DNA of 33,928 bases from Vulcanimicrobiota bacterium (GTDB lineage: Bacteria > Vulcanimicrobiota > Xenobia > Xenobiales > JADMJV01), in NCBI GenBank assembly GCA_022842865.1, contig JALHOV010000010.1, positions 1-33,928 of the forward strand, given 5' to 3'. Positions 14,059 through 23,489 of this stretch are shown here, piece after piece. Both the position numbers and the translations under genes were made by a program. The notes under the pieces were generated by a model. The model saw only the letters and a list, made by a program, of their open reading frames with translations, did not search any database and was not told the DNA's origin. How positions within the stretch are numbered: the first letter of the stretch is position 1; each line of letters begins with the position of its first letter.

Positions 14059-14655
14059 GTGCAGCGGGTGATTCTCGTTTTCCATAAGCCCTACGGTGTG
14101 CTCAGCCAGTATAAACCGGTGGCCGGCAAGCGCACGCTGCTGGAGTTTCCCGCTCTCAGCGGCGGCAAGGCGGTGGGCCGGTTGGACGAAGACAGTGAAG
14201 GCCTGCTGATGATTTCCGACCTGGCCTGGGTGCAGACTTTGCTGACCCGGCCCGGCCAGATCGAGAAATGTTACCGCGCACAGGTGGAGAGGATTCCCGA
14301 CGCGGCCGCTCTGCAACGCTTACGCCAGGGGGTCCGTTGCGGGGATTTTGTGAGTGCGCCGGCCCGGGCCAACCTGCTTGCGGACCTGCAAATGGCCGAG
14401 CGCGAGCCGCCCATTCGTCATCGCCTGAATGTGCCCACCGTCTGGCTGGAGCTGCAGTTGCGCGAGGGCAAGAATCGCCAGGTCCGGCGCATGACCGCGG
14501 CGGTCGGCCATCCCACCTTGCGCCTGCTGCGAGTGGGCATTGGACCTGTTCAGCTGGCCGATCTGGCTCCCGGTGCATGTCGCGAGCTAACCCGCCCCGA
14601 AAGAGATTGGCTCAATCGGGTTGGTAAACAGAAGGGAGGCTTATGGCAAAAGTAG
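14059..14655 (+). CDS. rluE: RluE/RsuA-family 23S rRNA pseudouridine synthase
   Basis: A 198-residue pseudouridine synthase of the RsuA/RluB/E/F group. The catalytic aspartate is D43 in [11 protein letters not shown]. It also has the family C-terminal motif [22 protein letters not shown]. There is no N-terminal S4 domain, which matches RluE (U2457 of E. coli 23S rRNA) better than RluB or RsuA, though the exact target is inferred. The start is GTG at 14059, giving [16 protein letters not shown]; a second GTG at 14068 is possible. Its 3' end overlaps that of the convergent histidine kinase gene by 44 bases. Confidence 0.9.
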
Positions 14656-16531
14656 TCCCTTCTCCCGCCTGGCTGGTCACGGCCACGCTGCCTCCCATGA
14701 GTTCCACGAAACGCTTGACGATTGCCAGCCCCAGGCCGGTGCCGCCATATTTGCGCGTGGTCGACTCGTCGGCCTGGGCGAATTCGTCAAAGATTTTGGA
14801 GCATTGTTCCTCGCTCATACCGATGCCGGTGTCGATGACCCGGATCAACACCGTTTTCCCGGCCACCTCGGCCTGAAGCTCAATGGTGCCGTCCTTGGTG
14901 AATTTGGCCGCGTTGCTGATCAGATTGAGCAAGACTTGCTTGAGCTTGGTGCGGTCCTGGCTGATCTCGTCGCCCGCATGGTATTCGCAACGGTAGGTGT
15001 TGTTTTTCTCGCGCACCAACGGCACCACAACTTGGCCGACCTCTTGGAGGAGATCAAGGAGAACAAAATTTTCGGCGTCCACCGACATTTTGTCGGCTTC
15101 CATCTTGGACAGGTCCAGGATGCTGTTGATCAGGGCCAACAGTTCCTTCCCGGAGCGACGAATGACACCGAGGTCCTCCACCCATTGCTTCCCTGGGTGT
15201 TCTTGGGGGAGATTACCCGCCACCCACTCGTGGTCGCCCAACTCGGCGATGAGCATTTCGCTGTAACCGATGATGGCATTCAAGGGGGTGCGCAGTTCGT
15301 GGGTCATGTTGGCCAGAAAGCGGCTTTTGGCCCGGTAGGCGGCCAGCGCTTCGTCGCGAGTCGCCTCCAGGTCAAGCAAGGTGGTTTCTAGAGAAGCGGC
15401 CATACGGTCAAAGGTGTCACCCAGATCGCCTATCTCATCACCGCGGCGCAGGCGCACGCGCACGGAGCGCTCGCCTTCGGCCAGGGCATGGGCGGCACGA
15501 GTCAGGCGCCGCAGTGGCTTCAGCAGACGCTCCGCCACCAGAAATCCGATGGTGGCCACCAACAGAGACAAGCCCAGGCTCACGCTCAGGGCCGAGCGTT
15601 CGGCCATTCCTTTGGGCTCGCTGATGATTTCGCGATTGACTTGAACCAACACCATAAAGTTGGTGCCGGGCACCGGTTGCCAGGCGCCGGCCACGCTACG
15701 GCCGGCGTAATCTTGATAGCCCTCGATGGAGTGGCCGGGCTCCTGAAAGTTGTCTCCGCATGGAACGGTCTGCCGGAAGGTCGTGCGATCCACCTTGCGA
15801 TTGCAAGACACCATCCAGCCCTCGTGAGTGACCAGGAAAACGTCGACCGGCACGTTGTTGGCTTCGGTGGGGAAGAGGTAGTTGGCGTCGCTGACGGCCA
15901 CGCGGCAGGCCAGCACCCCTTGCGATTCCCCTTCGCCGCGTACGGCCGACATCAGCCACATGGTGGGAAAGCCGAGAGATAACTCGGTTGAATCCATGTG
16001 CTCGGCGGACGGCCGGGCGGCGGGATAGACACTGGTGTAGGCGGAACCGCCCTGTTCCATCAACTTGACGACCTTGTCGATCTGATGCCGCTCGACCGCC
16101 TGGGTGAAGCCGTCGCCGTTGTCGGTCAGCACCAGTTTGCCGTCGGCGCCGACCAGGCAGACTTCGGTAAACCAGCGAGAGCTCTCGTCGCACAGGTGGA
16201 TGACGCCGTTGAGCCGGTAGAGAGACAGGAAATATTCGTCGGCGTCCTGCTTGCCCAGCTTGGAAAATCGGTTGATCTCGGCAAGTTGCTGGACCACGTC
16301 GGTAGAGCGGGCGATCGCCTCAGCTGTTGACTTTTGCTCGTTGAGCCAGAGTTCCACCTGGAAGGCTGAGGACTGAGCGACCGAGTCCAGCAGGTTCAAA
16401 GTGGAGGATTCGACTTGATTGCCGATGTTCACATAGGACTGGAAGCCCATGAACAGGGTAGGAAACAGACAGGAGAAAAGGACCAGCAAGATCAGCTTGG
16501 TGGAAAAGCGCAGCCTGCGGGTTTTCTTCAA
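14612..16531 (-). CDS. Membrane sensor histidine kinase (Cache-like sensor, HAMP, HisKA, HATPase)
   Basis: A 639-residue sensor kinase. A first membrane segment lies at about residues 11-30 and a second at about 313-333, enclosing a periplasmic domain of some 280 residues that resembles a double Cache sensor. A HAMP domain follows (about 334-385, ending [15 protein letters not shown]). The phosphoacceptor is H411 in [18 protein letters not shown]. The ATPase domain has the N box [12 protein letters not shown]1 DTGIGM, F box DEFAQAD and G2 GGTGLGLAI. There is no receiver domain. The start is TTG at 16531, overlapping the TGA of the periplasmic binding-protein gene (TTGA); no ATG occurs before the first membrane segment. 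Operon position and the divergent REC-kinase gene suggest a three-part signalling system, with the binding protein as input and the REC protein as phosphate acceptor. Confidence 0.94.
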
Positions 16532-17709
16532 GGCTTCACCCTGGGAAAGGGCTCGGGACGGATCGGCAGTTCAGAGCTCCACACCACCCTGGCCCGGCCA
16601 GCCTGAAAGCGAGCGATACGAATGGCTCGCCAGCAGTAAAGGTTTTTGGGATCGTAACGTATCAGGCCGCCCGGGGTATCCAGGATCAGGGCGCGGGTCG
16701 CCTTGCGCAGAGCCGCCGGCTCGGCTCGGCCGCAGCGCATGAGCGCCCTGGCAAAGGCTCGCACCTGGGAGTAAGCGGTTTCGCAAGCATCGTCCACCAC
16801 CCGGTCGCTGCCATAGCGTTTCTGGAAAGCAGCGCAGAAGCGGGCGTTCTGGGGCGACCGCAAGGACATAAAGTAGCCGGCGCAACTGAAGTGACCGTCG
16901 GTCAAAGAGCCCAGGCTCAGGGCCTGCGATTCGCTGAGCGACATGGACATCACCGGGGCCTTGCCGGCCGCGTTCTGGTATTGCTGAAAAAAAGCCCGCT
17001 GGCTGCTGCCATTGATGGTGTTGAGCACGACGCTGCAGCCGCTTTTTTTGATCTCGCGGATGATTTCGGTAAAGTCGCTGGCACCCCGCCGCCGGTAGCG
17101 TTCGCCCACCACCTGGCCTCCGTGCCGGGCCAAATACTGTCTGCAAAGTTCGTTGGTAGCGCGGGGATACAGGTAGTCAGAGCCAACCAGGAAGACCTTG
17201 GGGGGGCCAGCGTTGCCCAGATAGCGCAGGGCCGGAAAGAGCTGTTGATTGGCGGTTAGTCCCGAATAGATGGCGGCCGGCGAATCCTCCATGCCCTCGA
17301 ACTGAACCGGATAATAAAGTAACCCGCCACGAGGTTCGAGAACTTTCAGCACGGCTTTGCGTGAATCGCTGGTCCAGCAACCGAAAAAGACTCGCACCCC
17401 GTGGTGGTCCATCAAATCGGCCGCTTTGTCTGCGAACTCGGCGGGCGAGGAACCGCCATCGGCCACCACCGCCTCCAGACGGAGGCGTCGCTCGGATGCC
17501 AACACGATACCGCTTTGGTTGACTTCATCAATGGCCAAGAGAGTGGCTTCTTGGAGCGGTTTCTCGTTCTCGGCCATGGTCCCGGTGCTGGAGAATAGAA
17601 CTCCGACCTTGACGATATGCCGCGGCGCATCCTGAGCTTTCGACCGGGGAGTCAGGCAAAGTGCGCCCAGCAAAACCACCAGGATAACTAAAACTCGGCT
17701 TGAGCGCAT
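16528..17709 (-). CDS. UrtA/AmiC-like periplasmic binding protein
   Basis: A 393-residue type I periplasmic binding protein closest in pattern to UrtA (urea/short-amide binding). It shows VGVLFSSTGTMAENEKPLQE, FFGCWTSDSRKAVLKVLE, LLYYPVQFEGMEDSP and VLNTINGSSQRAFFQQY, all of which have counterparts in UrtA. The start is ATG 17709, giving a signal peptide with a hydrophobic core (RVLVILVVLLGAL) and likely cleavage after S-K-A. The frame stays open 36 codons upstream, but that stretch lies over the divergent kinase start and is unlikely to be coding. No urea ABC permease or ATPase genes are adjacent. Instead it is translationally coupled to a histidine kinase gene, so a sensory rather than transport role is likely. 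The ligand is inferred only from family resemblance. Confidence 0.88.
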   Translation of the reverse strand: MRSSRVLVILVVLLGALCLTPRSKAQDAPRHIVKVGVLFSSTGTMAENEKPLQEATLLAIDEVNQSGIVLASERRLRLEAVVADGGSSPAEFADKAADLMDHHGVRVFFGCWTSDSRKAVLKVLEPRGGLLYYPVQFEGMEDSPAAIYSGLTANQQLFPALRYLGNAGPPKVFLVGSDYLYPRATNELCRQYLARHGGQVVGERYRRRGASDFTEIIREIKKSGCSVVLNTINGSSQRAFFQQYQNAAGKAPVMSMSLSESQALSLGSLTDGHFSCAGYFMSLRSPQNARFCAAFQKRYGSDRVVDDACETAYSQVRAFARALMRCGRAEPAALRKATRALILDTPGGLIRYDPKNLYCWRAIRIARFQAGRARVVWSSELPIRPEPFPRVKP

Positions 17710-17779
17710 GAATCGCACTTCTCTTGCCGGGGCAACGCCCCTGGCAAGAACTCTGGACCGGGCGCAGAAAGGCGACCGC

Positions 17780-19012
17780 ATGATTGATCCCAAGCTGTTA
17801 CTGGTAGACGACAACAAGGAAAATCTGACCTGGCTGGCCCGCCGACTGCGACGCGATGGTTATCAGACGGTGCTGGCCGAAAGCGGCCCGATGGCTCTGG
17901 AGATCCTGGACATGGAAGCGATCTCCCTGGTGCTTCTGGACGTGCAGATGCCTGAAATGGATGGCTTCCAAGTGCTGGAGGCCATCCGCAAGACTCACAC
18001 CGAGAATGAGCTTCCGGTTTTTATGGTGTCGGCTAACACCGACACCGCTTCCAAGGTTCAGGGTATGGAACGGGGGGCCAACGACTACATCCCCAAGCCG
18101 GTGGAGTATGAATTTTTGTTGGCCAAGCTGAAGTCGCTCTTCAAGGTGCGTGAGTCCGGCAACTTCAATGCCGCTGTCCCACCCGTCGCTCGGGCTGCCT
18201 CCACCCTGGAAATCGGCGATCGGATCCAGCACTACCGTCTGGTCAGTCTGCTCGGAGAAGGCGGCATGGGCAAAGTCTATCGGGCCACCGATGAGAAGTT
18301 ATTGCGCGACGTGGCTTTGAAAGTCATGAGCGGCGAGATGAAACGGGAATCCCAGCTGCGCTTTTTGACCGAAGCCCGGGCTGTGGCCAGGGTGGCTCAC
18401 CCCAATGTGGTGACCATCTATGAGATCGGCGACTCTCCGCTCTCGTTTCTGGCCATGGAGTTGGTGGAGGGTCAGGAACTGGACAAGTATACTGAGGGTA
18501 AGGCGTTGGCGCCGTCGGAGGCGGTGCGTCTCACCTTGCAAATCGCGGAGGCTCTCGCGGCCGTCCACGAACGCGGCATTCTTCACCGCGACCTGAAGCC
18601 TTCCAACATCATGGTAAGCGGCGACGGTCGGGTGCGCGTAATGGATTTCGGCCTGGCCAAAATCGCCGAACTCGACGAAAAGCTGACGCGCACTGGCGAT
18701 GTCTGGGGCACTCCGCAGTTCATGTCGCCCGAGCACTTTGACCCTTGCCTGGGAGACGTCGACGCCCTCAGCGACCAGTTTGCCCTGGCAGCTCTTTTCT
18801 ATCTGCTGCTGACGGGTTTTCCGCCCTTTCGCTCCACCGCCATGGCTGCTTTGATTTTTGAAATTATGTCGAAACGGCCGAAGGACCCGGTGGAACTCAA
18901 TCCATTGGTGGCGCGGGCGGTGGCCGACGTCTGCTTGAAGGGTCTGAACAAGAAAAAAAGCGACCGCTATGCGAGCGTGGCCGAAATGGCCCGCGCCTTA
19001 AGGGGTCTCTAA
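17780..19012 (+). CDS. Response regulator receiver-Ser/Thr protein kinase fusion
   Basis: A 410-residue fusion. Residues 5-120 are a receiver domain with the acidic pair D10/D11, phosphoacceptor D54 in [14 protein letters not shown]84 and the invariant lysine K106 in YIPKP. Residues 150-410 are a Hanks-type kinase: glycine loop [12 protein letters not shown] lysine K181, catalytic HRDLKPSN (H269-R270-D271), DFG at 289-291 and MSPEH in the activation segment. All catalytic residues are present, so both phosphorelay input and Ser/Thr output look functional. The start at ATG 17780 has AAAGG upstream; an earlier ATG (17708) would overlap the divergent binding-protein start. It ends without transmembrane or PASTA segments, so it is cytosolic. 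The cognate histidine kinase is probably the one encoded just beyond the binding-protein gene. Confidence 0.95.
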
Positions 19013-19606
19013 GGCCTGGTCCTCGGGCCAATTGTCACAGCGCAGGCAGCCCTGGGGGTCCAAGCGGTAAACCCAGCCACTTTCGGGACATATCCAGCTA
19101 CCGTCGGGCTGTTCCTTCAGGCGAAATCCGTGCCGGCTCATCCAACCCTTGCGTTTGGCCGGCACTCCCGCCATCAAGGCGTAGTCGGGGACGTCGCCTT
19201 TGACCACCGCGCCGGCCGCCACAAAGGAGTAGCGCCCCAGGGTGGCGCCGCAGACGATGGTGCTGTTGGCTCCCAAAGTCGCTCCGCGGCGCACCAGGGT
19301 GCGCTGGTATTGTCCGCGGCGTACGATTTGCGAGCGCGGATTGATGACATTGGTGAAGACGCAGCTGGGGCCGCAGAAGACGTCGTCTTCCAGCTCCACG
19401 CCCTCGTAGACAGAGACATTGTTCTGGATTTTGACGTTTTTGCCAATGCGCACTCCCGGCGCCACCACTACGTTCTGGCCCAAGATGCAGCCTTCGCCCA
19501 GTAGCGCGCCCGGCATGATGTGGCAAAAGTGCCAGATGGTCGTGCCGGCTCCAATTTGGGCGCCCTCATCCACAAAAGCAGAGGGGTGAATCTTAACGTT
19601 ATCCAT
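18998..19606 (-). CDS. Hexapeptide-repeat sugar N-acetyltransferase (WbpD/WlbB-type)
   Basis: A 202-residue left-handed beta-helix acyltransferase. Hexapeptide repeats run from about residue 10 to 150, including the family features [27 protein letters not shown] and [16 protein letters not shown]. The C-terminal tail [10 protein letters not shown]...[10 protein letters not shown] is typical of WbpD/WlbB, which acetylates the 3-amino group of UDP-2-acetamido-3-amino-2,3-dideoxy-glucuronate from acetyl-CoA for surface polysaccharide. The WbpA/B/E partners are not in this window, so the substrate is inferred. ATG 19606 overlaps the TAA of moaC by eight bases, making it the last gene of the gatB-moeA-moaC unit. 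Its last 15 bases overlap the 3' end of the REC-kinase gene. Confidence 0.9.
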
Positions 19607-20066
19607 TCTGTTTCCAGTCTCCCGACTTGCCGCCGGTTTTTTCTAGAAGGCGAATGGGGCCGATGGTGATCCCCTTGTCCAGGCTTTTGAGCATGTCATA
19701 GAGGGTCAGGCAGGCTACCGAGACCGAGGTCAGTGCCTCCATTTCTACTCCGGTGCGCTCCGTGCAGCGCACTGTGGCCGTTACTTCGATCTTTTCCGGT
19801 GGGTGGGGCGTGATCTCCACGTTGACGCCAGATAGTCGCAAAGGATGGCACAGGGGAATCAGATCACTGGTCTTTTTGGCGGCACTGATACCGGCCACAC
19901 GCGCAACGGCGGCGGCGTCCCCCTTGTCTAGCGAGCCCTCGCGAAAGCGTCGCAGAGTTTCCTCCGACATGCTTAACCAACCCTGGGCGGTGGCCTGTCG
20001 CACGGTTTCGCCCTTGCCGGAAACATCCACCATATGGGCTTCACCGCGCTCGTTCCAGTGTTTCAA
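19599..20066 (-). CDS. moaC: Cyclic pyranopterin monophosphate synthase
   Basis: A 155-residue MoaC. It has the family opening [16 protein letters not shown], the central [11 protein letters not shown] and the [21 protein letters not shown] segment that forms the active site. It converts the MoaA product (3',8-cyclo-GTP) to cyclic pyranopterin monophosphate in molybdenum cofactor synthesis. The start is TTG 20066 ([12 protein letters not shown]), overlapping the moeA-like TGA; starting at the internal ATG would remove conserved residues. No moaA is present in the window, but a MoaD-MoaE fusion lies about 12 kb away. Confidence 0.95.
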
Positions 20067-22018
20067 GTAGGACTCTCCCAGAGTATCTGGCCCGTCTGGC
20101 TGAAGTCATAGTCGCTCAATTGCTGGGGCGCTTCGCTCTTGAAGCGGCTGGAACGAATGACCTGCACCAGTCCGGCCACTGGATAGCGGGCGAAAAAGCG
20201 CTTGGGGATGAGCAAATCCAGGCGCTCCTTGATGCAAGGGACGAAGTCCAATCGGAGCGTACGGGCGGCGGTCGAGATACCCGGTCCACAGTCGACGGCC
20301 TGGCTGGAGACGGCCGCGGCGACGGCCATGTGGGTCTTCACTTCGCGCGGGAAGCCGCCGATTTTCTCCGGGTCGAGGCCCAGCTTGCGCAAATGCCAGT
20401 CGAGCAAAACACGTGTGCCGCTGCCCTTTTGGCGGTTGATGAATTTCAGGTCGGAACGGCCCAGGTCTTGCAACCCCTCGATTTTCAGGGGGTTGCCCGG
20501 AGCTACGATCAGACCCAGGTCCCGGCTACAAAGGTTCATCAGCACCATCGGCTCGGGCAGGGCGCCGCCCTCTAGAAAGGGGACGTTGTACTGGCCCGTC
20601 TCCTCATCGAAGAGATGGATGGCGGCGGCGTGGCAGAGGCCAGCCTTGATGGCCTGCAGCCCTTTCATGCCGCCGGTCGCGGCCGTGTGCAGGGTTAATT
20701 CCGGGAAAGTGGAGCGCATCAAGCTGCGCAGCAGGTCAAAGCAAATGTCGTGCGTGCCCAGCACCAGCACGTTGTTGTGGAGTGAGCGCTGAGGGCTGAG
20801 CAGGCGTACAGAAACGTTAGTACGGGCCGGCAACTCTTCCACGTCGGCGTTGACGCGGAAGAGGCCCGAGGCGCGCACCAGGGACATCAGCGTGGAGGCG
20901 CCGCCGACCTCGGGGACGGCCACCAGTCGGTCATCCACCCAACCCATGCGCACGCGTACGAACTCTTCGCTGCCGGAGTAATTGCGTTTGAAAGGTACAG
21001 CCAGAGTGGCCTGGGCTCGCGGCAGATCTTCCTGGGAAAGCGAGGGTCCCAAAATTTGCTCGAGCACCGGCCGCGCGAAGGATTCAAAGCCGGCGAAGAC
21101 GCCGACGGGATGGAAGGGCAAGCCGATCAGCGGCTTGCCGCCCAGCACGCCAAGGACCAGGCTTTGACAGGGATTCAGGGCCACGCCGTGGAGGATGCGT
21201 TCTCCCAGGTCACTGACCAGACGGGAGAGCAGTGCCGTTCCGTGACTCGGGCCGGCCACGGTTAAAATCAAGTCCGCCTTTTGGGCGGCTTCTTTGAGCG
21301 CCTGGCCGGCTTCCTCCAGGCGCTCGGGTGCGATGGTCAAAATCTCGGGGATGGCTCCCAGTTCCTGCACCAACCCACTGAGCGTCAGGCTGTTGGAGTC
21401 AATCATCTGGCCGACTTGCGGCTTGGTGCCGGCCGGAACCAGGTGATTGCCCAGCGACAGAATCGCCACCACCGGCTGCTGATAAACGTCGAGGGTCTCG
21501 ACTCCCGCCGCCGCCAGAGCGCCGATGTCGACCGGTTGAATGCGGTGGTCCTTGGGAATGACCACCTCGTTTTGCTGCACGTCTTCGCCGGCCGGTCGTA
21601 CGTTGCGCCAGGGATTGGAGGGTTTCACCAGGACCACGGTGCCGCGATTGGTGGCTTCCAGTTCCGCCAGCGGAACCACCGCGTCGTAGCCTTCCGGCAC
21701 CGGACTGCCCATTTCCACAAAAGCATTTCCCGAAGTGATGGAAAGCTCGACGGGATGGTCGCGAGTGGCGGTGAACGTATCGGCCGAGCGCACCAGCAGG
21801 CCGTCGATGGCTGCCGAATAGTAGTGCGGGGAGTCGGAAGCGGCGGCCACCGAGCGGCTGGTGATGCGTTTGAGCGACTGGGCCAGGGGCACATTCTCGT
21901 GTTCCGGACGTCGCAGAGCCTTGTGAAACTCAAGTTCCGAGAGGAAACGGTCCAGCGCTTCCTCGGCTGGCCATTCTTGAAGGCCCAGTTCGTTAGAGTC
22001 CATCACACTCTCAGGCAT
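20063..22018 (-). CDS. MoeA-like protein fused to a periplasmic-binding-protein-like domain
   Basis: A 651-residue fusion. Residues 15-410 follow the MoeA/gephyrin-E layout, and residues about 415-630 form a PBP-like domain (VLVLGTHDICFDLLRSLM...INRQKGSGTRVLLDWHL) like those attached to some MoeA proteins and resembling tungstate/molybdate-binding folds. The MoeA part has lost several hallmark residues: the usual GDE is GNH (190-192), the SGGxSxGD loop is AGPSHGT (255-261), and PGNP is PFHP (301-304). D72 in SAAIDG is retained. Canonical MoeA inserts molybdate into adenylated molybdopterin, so with these changes enzyme activity is doubtful and a sensing or scaffold role is possible. It lies between gatB and moaC with 4-8 bp overlaps, supporting co-expression with molybdenum cofactor genes. 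Confidence 0.88.
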   Translation of the reverse strand: MPESVMDSNELGLQEWPAEEALDRFLSELEFHKALRRPEHENVPLAQSLKRITSRSVAAASDSPHYYSAAIDGLLVRSADTFTATRDHPVELSITSGNAFVEMGSPVPEGYDAVVPLAELEATNRGTVVLVKPSNPWRNVRPAGEDVQQNEVVIPKDHRIQPVDIGALAAAGVETLDVYQQPVVAILSLGNHLVPAGTKPQVGQMIDSNSLTLSGLVQELGAIPEILTIAPERLEEAGQALKEAAQKADLILTVAGPSHGTALLSRLVSDLGERILHGVALNPCQSLVLGVLGGKPLIGLPFHPVGVFAGFESFARPVLEQILGPSLSQEDLPRAQATLAVPFKRNYSGSEEFVRVRMGWVDDRLVAVPEVGGASTLMSLVRASGLFRVNADVEELPARTNVSVRLLSPQRSLHNNVLVLGTHDICFDLLRSLMRSTFPELTLHTAATGGMKGLQAIKAGLCHAAAIHLFDEETGQYNVPFLEGGALPEPMVLMNLCSRDLGLIVAPGNPLKIEGLQDLGRSDLKFINRQKGSGTRVLLDWHLRKLGLDPEKIGGFPREVKTHMAVAAAVSSQAVDCGPGISTAARTLRLDFVPCIKERLDLLIPKRFFARYPVAGLVQVIRSSRFKSEAPQQLSDYDFSQTGQILWESPT

Positions 22019-23489
22019 CGAGAACCTCCTTGAGGATGCGCATGACCTCGGCGGCGTTGGCTCGCCCCTTGCTCTGCTTCATCACCTGTCCTACCAATTG
22101 ATTGAGGGCTTTTTCCTTGCCCGCCTTATATTCTCCAACCGGGCCCGGGTTGGCGTCCACAGTTTGTTGGACCATTTGCTGGAGTTCATCGCCGCCGCTC
22201 ATCTGGGCAAGACCCAGTTTTTCAATCCACTCGGCCGGTTGACCGCCCTCTTCAAAGAGCTTTTCCAGCACCTGACGAGCGCCCTGCCGATTGACTTTTG
22301 ATTGAGCCAGTTGCTGGATGATTTGCACCAGTCCCGTCGGAGTGAGGCGGCTCTCGACCAGCGGAAGGTTGCGTTCCTGGCTGAGACGGGTCACTTCATT
22401 GGCAAGCCAGTTGCTCACTTCCTTGGCTTCGGCGCCCAGACTCAGGCACTGCTCGAAGAAGTCGGAGAGAGCTCGACTCTGCACCATCAAGCCGGCGTCG
22501 TACGGGCTCAGGCCGCCGTCCAGGTAGCGCTGGCTGCGTTGGCGCGGCAGTTCTGCCAGGCCCTTTTCGATCTCGGCCAGCCAATCCGGGGAGATTTCCA
22601 ACGGGGGCAGGTCGGGTTCTGGAAAATAGCGATAGTCGTGGGCGTCCTCTTTGCTGCGCATGGAAATGGTGACTTTGCGAGCTTCATCCCAGCCGCGCGT
22701 CTCCTGAACGATTTTGCCGCCTTCCTTGACGACCTTGATCTGGCGCTGAATTTCAAAGTCGACCGCGTCGCGCACCGACTTGAAGCTGTTCATGTTCTTG
22801 ATCTCCGCCTTGGTGCCCAACTCTTCCTGACCCACTGGTCGCACCGAGATGTTGGCATCGCAGCGCATGGAGCCCTCTTCCATACGGCAGTCGCTGATGC
22901 CCAACCAGACCAGGATCTCGCGCATCTTCTGCAGGTAGGCGCTGGCTTCGTCGGCGCTGCGGATTTCGGGCTCGGAGACGATTTCCATGAGCGGCACCCC
23001 GGCCCGGTTGTAGTCCACCAGACTCAACTCGGAGGAGGCCAGACGGTCGGGCACCAGCTCCCCGTTGGCGTTGCGCTTGAAGTGAATCGACTTGCCGGTG
23101 TCTTCTTCCAGGTGGATGCGAGTGATGTTGATGACCTTCTCCGCTTCGCCCAGGTCGGAGATGATCAGGCGGCCGTGGGCGGCCAGCGGCTGGTCATACT
23201 GGGAGGTTTGGAAGTCCTTGGGCATGTCCGGGTAGAAGTAGTTTTTGCGGTCGAACTTGGACAGGCTGGGAACCTGGCAGTCCAGCGCCTTGGCCGCCAG
23301 AAGGTGCAGTTCCACGGCTTTCTGGTTGACCACCGGCAGACTGCCGGGCAGTCCCAGGCAGATGGGGCACACCAGCGAGTTGGGGGGCGCCCCGAAGCGG
23401 TTGGCGCAACCGCAAAAGAGTTTGCTGTGGGTGGCCAACTCAACGTGGACTTCCAGACCAATGACGGCTTCGTACTGCACTGTTCTCAC
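22011..23489 (-). CDS. gatB: Asp-tRNA(Asn)/Glu-tRNA(Gln) amidotransferase subunit B
   Basis: A 492-residue, full-length GatB. It starts YEAVIGLEVHVEL, has the zinc-type cysteines FCGCANRFG and CPICLGLPG, the kinase-like core (YFYPDMPKDFQTSQYD, HLEEDTGKS, DYNRAGVPLMEIVSEPE), and the C-terminal helical and YqeY-like domains that bind tRNA. In the GatCAB complex it phosphorylates the mischarged aminoacyl-tRNA and directs amidation. The start is GTG 23489. gatA and gatC are not in the window. It is first in a four-gene minus-strand unit; a YqeY-domain gene lies 6.4 kb away. Length and motifs leave little doubt about identity. Confidence 0.97.
   Translation of the reverse strand: MRTVQYEAVIGLEVHVELATHSKLFCGCANRFGAPPNSLVCPICLGLPGSLPVVNQKAVELHLLAAKALDCQVPSLSKFDRKNYFYPDMPKDFQTSQYDQPLAAHGRLIISDLGEAEKVINITRIHLEEDTGKSIHFKRNANGELVPDRLASSELSLVDYNRAGVPLMEIVSEPEIRSADEASAYLQKMREILVWLGISDCRMEEGSMRCDANISVRPVGQEELGTKAEIKNMNSFKSVRDAVDFEIQRQIKVVKEGGKIVQETRGWDEARKVTISMRSKEDAHDYRYFPEPDLPPLEISPDWLAEIEKGLAELPRQRSQRYLDGGLSPYDAGLMVQSRALSDFFEQCLSLGAEAKEVSNWLANEVTRLSQERNLPLVESRLTPTGLVQIIQQLAQSKVNRQGARQVLEKLFEEGGQPAEWIEKLGLAQMSGGDELQQMVQQTVDANPGPVGEYKAGKEKALNQLVGQVMKQSKGRANAAEVMRILKEVLDA

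What the first reader, a model, noticed from the sequence alone, without database searches (positions are those of the whole stretch)
14612..19012. Candidate three-component system: periplasmic binding protein, histidine kinase and REC-Ser/Thr kinase
A UrtA/AmiC-like exported binding protein (16528-17709) is coupled by a TTGA overlap to a Cache-like histidine kinase (14612-16531), and divergent from them, 70 bp away, is a receiver-Ser/Thr kinase fusion (17780-19012) with all catalytic residues. Seen: gene order, overlap, motifs. Known: urea/amide binding proteins of this type usually feed an ABC transporter, and REC-STPK fusions are uncommon. Inference: ligand binding drives histidine phosphorylation, which passes phosphate to D54 and switches the Ser/Thr kinase, linking small-molecule sensing to a eukaryotic-like kinase output.
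Basis: partly seen in the sequence, partly recalled or inferred. Interest (0 to 1): 0.75.

Follow-up and report, generated by a model that had tools for sequence, protein, structure and literature searches.

The report
Urea-type sensor driving a protein kinase
Three neighbouring bacterial genes look like a relay in which a secreted protein resembling a urea-binding protein tells a membrane sensor kinase to switch a eukaryote-like protein kinase, a pairing kept in related species but not yet tested at the bench.

Summary
In detail: three intact genes encode a probably exported UrtA-like binding protein (SBP), a two-TM histidine kinase (HK) joined to it by a TTGA overlap, and a divergent receiver-Ser/Thr kinase (REC-STPK) 70 bp away. 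All 5 genus genomes held keep the order, the overlap and a 70-79 bp gap. Three genomes of another family keep the divergent HK/REC-STPK pair without the SBP and without any other window gene. A third family (G006) has SBP-HK at one locus and REC-STPK overlapping a hybrid HK (ATGA) at another. The SBP keeps 8 of 8 conserved urea-pocket residues of UrtA; AmiC departs at four. No permease scoring best as UrtB/UrtC was found in the genome. Best reading: a transporter-type binding protein serves as co-sensor of an older HK/REC-STPK pair, so a small ligand (urea predicted) controls a Hanks-type kinase. Phosphotransfer, SBP-HK contact, ligand and targets are inferred, not shown. SBP-HK-regulator systems (AioXSR, CuaDSR) and SBP-to-STPK sensing (GlnH-GlnX-PknG) are known; the combination was not seen in the searches made. 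New variant of a known kind.

The parts
16528..17709 (-). SBP (P0002): probably exported UrtA-like periplasmic binding protein, 393 aa; urea-pocket equivalents W112, S114, Y133, Q136, E138, Y179, N233, S257
   Evidence: Pfam Peripla_BP_5 2.1e-109; TIGR03407 330 bits, below cut-off 492.75; pocket mapping on residues named in PMC10392092
14612..16531 (-). Histidine kinase (P0001): TM - periplasmic dCache-like domain - TM - HAMP - HisKA - HATPase_c, 639 aa, no receiver or Hpt match
16528..16531 (-). TTGA overlap: SBP stop TGA shares bases with HK start TTG (translational coupling inferred)
   Evidence: 5 of 5 genus genomes
15299..15301 (-). Codon of H411, predicted autophosphorylated histidine
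   Evidence: motif MTHELRTP at residue 409
17710..17779 (.). 70-bp divergent intergenic region, presumed to hold both promoters; no sigma-70-like site found
17780..19012 (+). REC-STPK (P0003): receiver domain (residues 7-117) fused to Hanks-type kinase (152-398), 410 aa
17939..17941 (+). Codon of D54, predicted phospho-acceptor of the receiver
   Evidence: Asp in 15 of 15 REC-STPK rows compared
18590..18592 (+). Codon of D271, catalytic Asp of the HRD motif
   Evidence: Asp in 15 of 15 rows compared

Best explanation
A three-component relay with a Ser/Thr kinase output. The secreted SBP binds a small ligand (urea most likely) in the periplasm; the closed SBP docks on the dCache-like periplasmic domain of the HK and shifts its kinase/phosphatase balance; H411 phosphate passes directly to D54 of the REC-STPK (no hybrid receiver or Hpt in between); the phosphorylated receiver changes the activity of the fused Hanks-type kinase, which then phosphorylates unidentified cytoplasmic targets. 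The HK/REC-STPK pair is the older core and the SBP was recruited from a urea-transporter-type family. Shown by sequence: gene integrity, domains, catalytic residues, overlap, conservation, pocket residues. Inferred: each molecular step of the relay and the order of recruitment.
For: SBP-HK coupling: TTGA overlap 5 of 5 in the genus; a GTGA overlap is possible in G006. Of the 10 SBP-family matches (E<=1e-45) in the 149 genomes of the phylum searched, 7 lie in this order and all 7 are followed by an HK gene; the other 3 have a urea permease gene within the 1.5 kb held downstream, two above the UrtB cut-off and one a partial UrtC below it. HK-REC-STPK: divergent pair in 5 of 5 genus genomes and in G010, G011, G012 of another family, where no other of 32 window frames matches; in G006 the REC-STPK overlaps the end of a Cache hybrid HK by ATGA. 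So in 9 of 9 genomes with a P0001-like HK (E<=1e-70; 19 searched) the best REC-STPK lies beside an HK. Presence: both in 9, neither in 8, REC-STPK only in 2. Receiver residues D10, D54, S84, K106 are intact in these 9, while the HKs of G010-G012 end in a degenerate receiver-like stretch, with no Response_reg hit in the one scanned, leaving the neighbouring REC-STPK as the natural acceptor. Ligand: 8 of 8 conserved UrtA urea residues in 7 of 7 SBPs aligned; AmiC differs at W120, Q144, N246, S274 (residues from passages of PMC10392092). Orphan SBP: no close second copy in the genome; the three PF02653 permeases score best as LivH, LivM (own fused SBP) and ribose permease, all below those models' cut-offs.
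Against: No biochemical data. Conservation inside the genus is partly general synteny (flanks shared in G001-G003). The three family-f3 genomes are one genus, so the divergent pair is seen in two lineages only. G005, of the window's own family, has none of the three proteins at the thresholds used, and G013, of the same genus as G010-G012, lacks the pair. The genome encodes many HKs and receivers, so another regulator could be the HK's partner. The HK sensor could not be modelled (mean pLDDT 41.7) and matched no solved structure, so dCache and SBP docking rest on sub-threshold profile hits. REC-STPK relatives in G007 and G009 occur without a P0001-like HK. No urease in 4 of 5 genus genomes (G000 is 82% complete). 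The tree of REC-STPKs leaves the deep order of the groups unresolved, so orthology across families rests on shared arrangement.
Confidence: 0.55

Rival explanations
1. The SBP and HK form a sensing pair, but the HK signals to another response regulator encoded elsewhere; the REC-STPK is only a divergent neighbour or has its own HK.
For: The own-genome search with P0003 gave 152 matches, among them many separate receiver domains, and REC-STPK paralogues C264, C18 and C452 have no P0001-like HK (tblastn 1e-20) in the 6.5-16 kb fetched around them.
Against: The divergent HK/REC-STPK pair is retained in two families with different flanks and the REC-STPK overlaps an HK in G006; none of the other window genes scanned with Pfam has a receiver domain (22 of the 29 other frames called).
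Confidence: 0.2
2. The HK senses by its own dCache-like domain; the SBP serves mainly as a scavenger or transporter component using permeases elsewhere, and the coupling is only co-regulation.
For: The f3 HKs do without an SBP; in CuaDSR the two-component form still perceives cellobiose without its SBP (abstract and passages of PMC10384115).
Against: No permease scoring best as UrtB/UrtC was found; the only Liv-like system has its own SBP fused to the permease. SBP-HK overlap is conserved 5 of 5, and the SBP scores far below the UrtA model (330 and 350 bits in the two genus members scanned) whereas a phylum UrtA beside UrtB scores 514, as expected if the transporter-docking surface is no longer kept (inference).
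Confidence: 0.15
3. Same relay, different ligand: the pocket kept its urea-type geometry but the physiological signal is another small amide or urea-like compound.
For: Sub-threshold UrtA score; one pocket position differs, F192 to Y181, as in AmiC; no urease in 4 of 5 genus genomes.
Against: F192 has little effect on binding in UrtA, and the eight other residues are retained (passages of PMC10392092).
Confidence: 0.3
4. The information runs the other way: the Ser/Thr kinase phosphorylates and tunes the HK, and the receiver domain only tethers it to the HK.
For: STPK phosphorylation of two-component proteins is documented in other bacteria (recalled; reviews on it only seen in the listing).
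Against: The receiver keeps its phosphorylation site (D10, D54, S84, K106; D11) in the 9 HK-linked copies aligned, which mere tethering would not need.
Confidence: 0.08

Closest known systems
AioX-AioS-AioR (arsenite) and CuaD-CuaS-CuaR (cellobiose) three-component systems
   Same: SBP gene linked to an HK and a response regulator. CuaS is 627 aa with TMs at 30-49 and 316-339, much like P0001, and CuaD binds CuaS (PMC10384115, abstract and passages); [quoted passage not shown]
   Different: There the regulator controls transcription; here the receiver carries a Ser/Thr kinase and no DNA-binding domain was found. The SBP families differ (UrtA-type here).
LuxP-LuxQ
   Same: SBP bound to an HK with a tandem-PDC (dCache-type) periplasmic domain (passage of PMC8534201); P0001 has a weak dCache_1 match.
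   Different: Ligand, SBP family and output differ; LuxQ is a hybrid kinase (recalled).
GlnH-GlnX-PknG of Actinobacteria
   Same: Works alike in outline: a solute-binding protein is proposed to report a nutrient across the membrane to a Ser/Thr kinase (abstract of PMC6069109).
   Different: The membrane link GlnX is described as a transmembrane protein, not an HK feeding a receiver; transmission is proposed to be by protein contact.
UrtA of the urea ABC transporter UrtABCDE
   Same: Closest named binding-protein family; 8 of 8 conserved urea-pocket residues kept.
   Different: Below the UrtA cut-off; no urea permease gene beside it, and none of the genome's PF02653 permeases scores best as UrtB/UrtC; an HK gene lies in their place.
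AmiC (amide regulator, partner AmiR)
   Same: Same Pfam family used for regulation rather than transport (1PEA match; AmiR/ANTAR pairing recalled).
   Different: AmiC differs from both UrtA and P0002 at four of nine pocket positions; no ANTAR partner gene found in the window genes scanned; P0002 has a signal-like N-terminus.

Membership tests
SBP-HK-RR three-component system | SBP gene genetically linked to the HK gene | tested here: met
   TTGA overlap 5 of 5
SBP-HK-RR three-component system | HK with two TMs and an extracytoplasmic sensor domain | tested here: met
SBP-HK-RR three-component system | Linked protein with an intact receiver domain | tested here: met
   D10, D11, D54, S84, K106, divergent neighbour
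SBP-HK-RR three-component system | SBP binds the HK sensor and is needed for full signalling | not testable with these tools
   single-sequence model of the sensor unusable, pLDDT 41.7
SBP-HK-RR three-component system | Regulator output is transcriptional (a feature of AioXSR and CuaDSR rather than of the definition) | tested here: not met
   only receiver and kinase-type families in P0003; hence filed as a variant
UrtA, urea transporter SBP (TIGR03407) | Score above the curated cut-off | tested here: not met
   330 vs 492.75 bits
UrtA, urea transporter SBP (TIGR03407) | Conserved urea-binding residues | tested here: met
   8 of 8 conserved positions
UrtA, urea transporter SBP (TIGR03407) | Linked UrtBC permeases | tested here: not met
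   the three PF02653 hits of the genome lie on contigs C172 and C589, none in the window (C10), and score best as LivH, LivM and ribose permease
AmiC | AmiC-type pocket | tested here: not met
   P0002 has UrtA's residue, not AmiC's, at 4 of the 5 pocket positions where UrtA and AmiC differ; it matches AmiC at the fifth (F192 to Tyr)
AmiC | Adjacent AmiR/ANTAR regulator | tested here: not met
   HK and REC-STPK are the neighbours; an ANTAR gene was annotated beside an SBP in 3 of 3 plasmid loci viewed
Hanks-type Ser/Thr kinase | Catalytic Lys, Glu, HRD, Asn, DFG | tested here: met
Hanks-type Ser/Thr kinase | Kinase activity | not testable with these tools
   needs an assay
dCache sensor kinase | dCache_1 domain above cut-off | tested here: inconclusive
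   25 bits (cut-off 45) in P0001 and 24.7 in the G012 HK, both spanning nearly the whole profile
GlnH-GlnX-PknG type | GlnX-like membrane protein and PknG-like kinase | not tested
   no GlnX or PknG comparison was made; resemblance is functional only

The most novel reading that the evidence does not exclude
A urea-type transporter binding protein has been recruited to gate an older HK/REC-STPK pair, giving a three-component system whose output is Hanks-type Ser/Thr phosphorylation rather than transcription, within a lineage that also fuses periplasmic-binding domains directly to Ser/Thr kinases.
Probability: 0.5. Interest if true: 0.7.

Novelty: new variant of a known kind. Interest (0 to 1): 0.55.

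Why it matters
[quoted passage not shown] Here the presumed input (an SBP with a predictable ligand), the membrane step and the kinase sit in one 4.4-kb locus, so a defined ligand-to-Ser/Thr-kinase path can be rebuilt from three proteins. It would also show how a transport-type protein becomes a receptor subunit: in the same phylum the family is found beside urea permeases in 3 genomes and, in this order, beside sensor kinases in 6 genomes.

Tried and rejected
Structure of the HK sensor: one single-sequence prediction gave mean pLDDT 41.7 and was not used for a fold search; a five-sequence profile of the sensor found nothing meaningful in the PDB, best E 0.34. Sigma-70 promoter scan of the divergent region: nothing; the intergenic DNA aligns poorly (mean column identity 61%). 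Urea utilisation as the purpose: urease in only 1 of 5 genus genomes. SBP-HK or REC-STPK-HK pairs elsewhere: 0 of 19 UrtA-like loci (from 13 of 47 genomes reached through loci; their phyla and that of the window were not compared) had an HK core (tblastn 1e-6) within the about 1.5 kb held on each side (one locus shorter), and 0 of 3 full-length REC-STPKs had one in the stretch held (1.5 kb a side for two, 8 kb for Alcanivorax); only 47 and 22 of the 80 loci were used for these two searches, so this is a small sample. REC-STPK tree: relations between the HK-linked copies of the families are unresolved. Literature: ten searches, of which 35, 73 and 74 found no paper; of the others I saw titles and abstract beginnings of the rows listed only (for example 20 of 165 and 20 of 282). 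No row described an SBP-HK-REC-STPK system, but the library lacks most subscription journals, and Galperin's response-regulator surveys were not held.
Full report
What is there. The window is contig C10 of an 8.0-Mb, 809-contig assembly, 82.2% complete and 6.25% contaminated. The three reading frames are intact at the given coordinates. P0002 is a probably exported 393-aa binding protein of Pfam Peripla_BP_5 (2.1e-109), related to UrtA (TIGR03407, 330 bits against a cut-off of 492.75). P0001 is a 639-aa membrane HK with HAMP, HisKA and HATPase_c and a periplasmic region that matches dCache_1 below its cut-off. P0003 is a receiver fused to a Hanks-type kinase with the key receiver and kinase residues. 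The SBP stop and HK start share TTGA; the REC-STPK starts 70 bp away in the other direction.

Conservation in the genus. All 5 genomes of the genus held (G000-G004) have the same order, the same TTGA overlap (5 of 5) and a gap of 70-79 bp (5 of 5). In G001-G003 the flanks are also shared, so this alone is weak evidence; in G004 no window gene is matched beyond the HK and about 2.2 kb of unmatched DNA lies beyond the REC-STPK, yet the three genes stay together.

Conservation beyond the genus. In G010, G011 and G012 (one genus of another family in the order) a P0001-like HK (46-48% identity over the matched C-terminal part) and a REC-STPK (45-46%) lie divergently. With the starts I chose, the gap is 53 bp in G012 and 96 bp in G010; in G011 the HK start is unclear and the gap is at least 55 bp. 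No SBP of this family is in the 18 kb fetched (tblastn, best E 0.48), and of 32 window frames only the HK and the REC-STPK match there (tblastn 1e-8). The HKs of these genomes end in about 115 residues that align with a receiver but lack most of its acidic cluster, its phospho-Asp and its Lys; Pfam finds no Response_reg in the one scanned, G012. In G006 (a third family) an SBP and a hybrid HK can overlap by GTGA on one contig, and the REC-STPK on another contig overlaps the end of a Cache hybrid HK by ATGA. Over the 19 genomes searched with both proteins, HK (E<=1e-70) and REC-STPK (E<=1e-60) are both present in 9, both absent in 8, and REC-STPK alone is present in 2 (G007, G009). In 9 of 9 genomes with both, the best REC-STPK lies beside an HK gene. 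Against a universal role: G005 of the window's own family lacks all three proteins at these thresholds, and G013, of the genus of G010-G012, lacks the pair.

Origin of the SBP. Of 149 genomes of the phylum searched, 9 have the SBP family at E<=1e-45, with 10 matches. The 7 in this order are each followed by an HK gene (including a second copy in G001 beside a hybrid HK with GAF, two receivers and Hpt). The 3 others (G155, G186, G193) have a urea permease gene close by (UrtB above cut-off in two, a partial UrtC below cut-off in one) and no HK core at 1e-3 in the about 1.5 kb held on each side; the one SBP scanned there is a true UrtA at 514 bits. In 47 genomes reached through loci, 0 of 19 UrtA-like loci (in 13 genomes) had an HK core nearby. 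Three plasmid loci viewed, picked among the 40 rows listed of 1506 records because their labels were not urtA, were all urea-transporter clusters with an ANTAR gene beside an SBP. The simplest reading is that a transporter binding protein was recruited to an HK in this order, and that in the window's genus this HK was already paired with a REC-STPK. The order of these events is inferred, not reconstructed.

Ligand. PMC10392092 (passages read) names nine residues near urea in UrtA, eight of them strictly conserved, four making hydrogen bonds. All eight are kept in 7 of 7 SBPs aligned here (P0002: W112, S114, Y133, Q136, E138, Y179, N233, S257); the ninth, F192, which matters little for binding, is Tyr in the five genus copies. 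AmiC departs at W120, Q144, N246 and S274, and at F192. Urea is therefore the best prediction. Against it: the overall score is far below the UrtA cut-off, and urease was found in only 1 of the 5 genus genomes.

Is it a transporter subunit? In the window's genome PF02653 permeases number three: two in a Liv-like operon (a LivH-like permease fused to its own SBP, then LivM-, LivG- and LivF-like genes) and one ribose-like. Their best NCBIfam models are LivH, LivM and ribose permease; UrtB and UrtC score lower; all are below the curated cut-offs, so the substrate of the Liv-like system is open. P0002 has no close second copy. It is best seen as a sensing SBP, with the reservation that the assembly is 82% complete.

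Mechanism. Most likely the ligand-bound SBP engages the HK periplasmic domain, as stated for LuxP-LuxQ (tandem-PDC sensor; PMC8534201, passage), reported as binding for CuaD-CuaS (PMC10384115, abstract) and proposed for AioX-AioS (PMC5908839, passages). The HK has no receiver or Hpt match of its own, so phosphate can pass directly from H411 to D54, and the receiver then controls the kinase domain. The lineage without the SBP parallels CuaSR, which still perceives its signal without its SBP. The sign of the control (activation or inhibition) and the targets cannot be read from sequence.

What is known and what is new. SBP-HK-regulator systems are known, response regulators with kinase output domains have been noted in surveys (recalled; those papers were not held), and SBP-to-Ser/Thr-kinase sensing is proposed for GlnH-GlnX-PknG (abstract of PMC6069109). 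No row listed describes an SBP-HK-REC-STPK system; searches found no paper. Full-length REC-STPK matches were also seen in Alcanivorax (L022), an unclassified MAG (L196) and Labilithrix (L216), without an HK core in the stretches held, so the domain fusion is not unique to this group; its linkage to an SBP-HK pair is what sets this apart.

Noticed in passing
L148:5106-7433 (-), G000 contig C19: One 775-aa protein joins a Ser/Thr kinase (29-266), a hydrophobic stretch near 328-346, a TPR and a Peripla_BP_6 domain (445-765): probably a membrane kinase with its own binding-protein sensor. Weak SBP matches in open frames of 753-777 aa occur in G001, G003 and G004; their kinase content was not checked.
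   Followed up: partly
L167:4929-9453 (+), G000 contig C172: A Liv-like ABC transporter operon in which the binding protein is fused to the LivH-like permease in one 717-aa frame.
   Followed up: partly
L147:3354-4607 (+), G000 contig C452; L156:1548-2795 (+), G012: REC-STPK paralogues with degenerate receivers (acidic position lost in both; conserved Lys lost in C452) but intact kinase residues: candidate pseudo-receiver kinases.
   Followed up: partly
L149:8071-10389 (-), L150, L151: HKs paired with REC-STPKs in family f3 end in a degenerate receiver-like region.
   Followed up: partly
L144:5871-10591 (-), G001 contig C23: A second UrtA-like SBP (472 bits for UrtA) upstream of a hybrid HK with GAF, two receivers and Hpt; the same genome also has a urease.
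   Followed up: partly
whole genome of the window (G000): A search with P0003 gives 152 matches at E<=0.001 (kinase or receiver domains, only 150 of 293 candidates scored): a large signalling-kinase repertoire.
   Followed up: no
window 18998-22018 (-): Hexapeptide transferase, MoaC and a MoeA fused to a PBP_like domain (651 aa), next to GatB at 22011-23489.
   Followed up: no
window 17764-17769: A GCAGAA word 10 bp before the REC-STPK start is invariant in the 5 genus genomes although most of the gap varies; it may be part of the ribosome-binding region.
   Followed up: no
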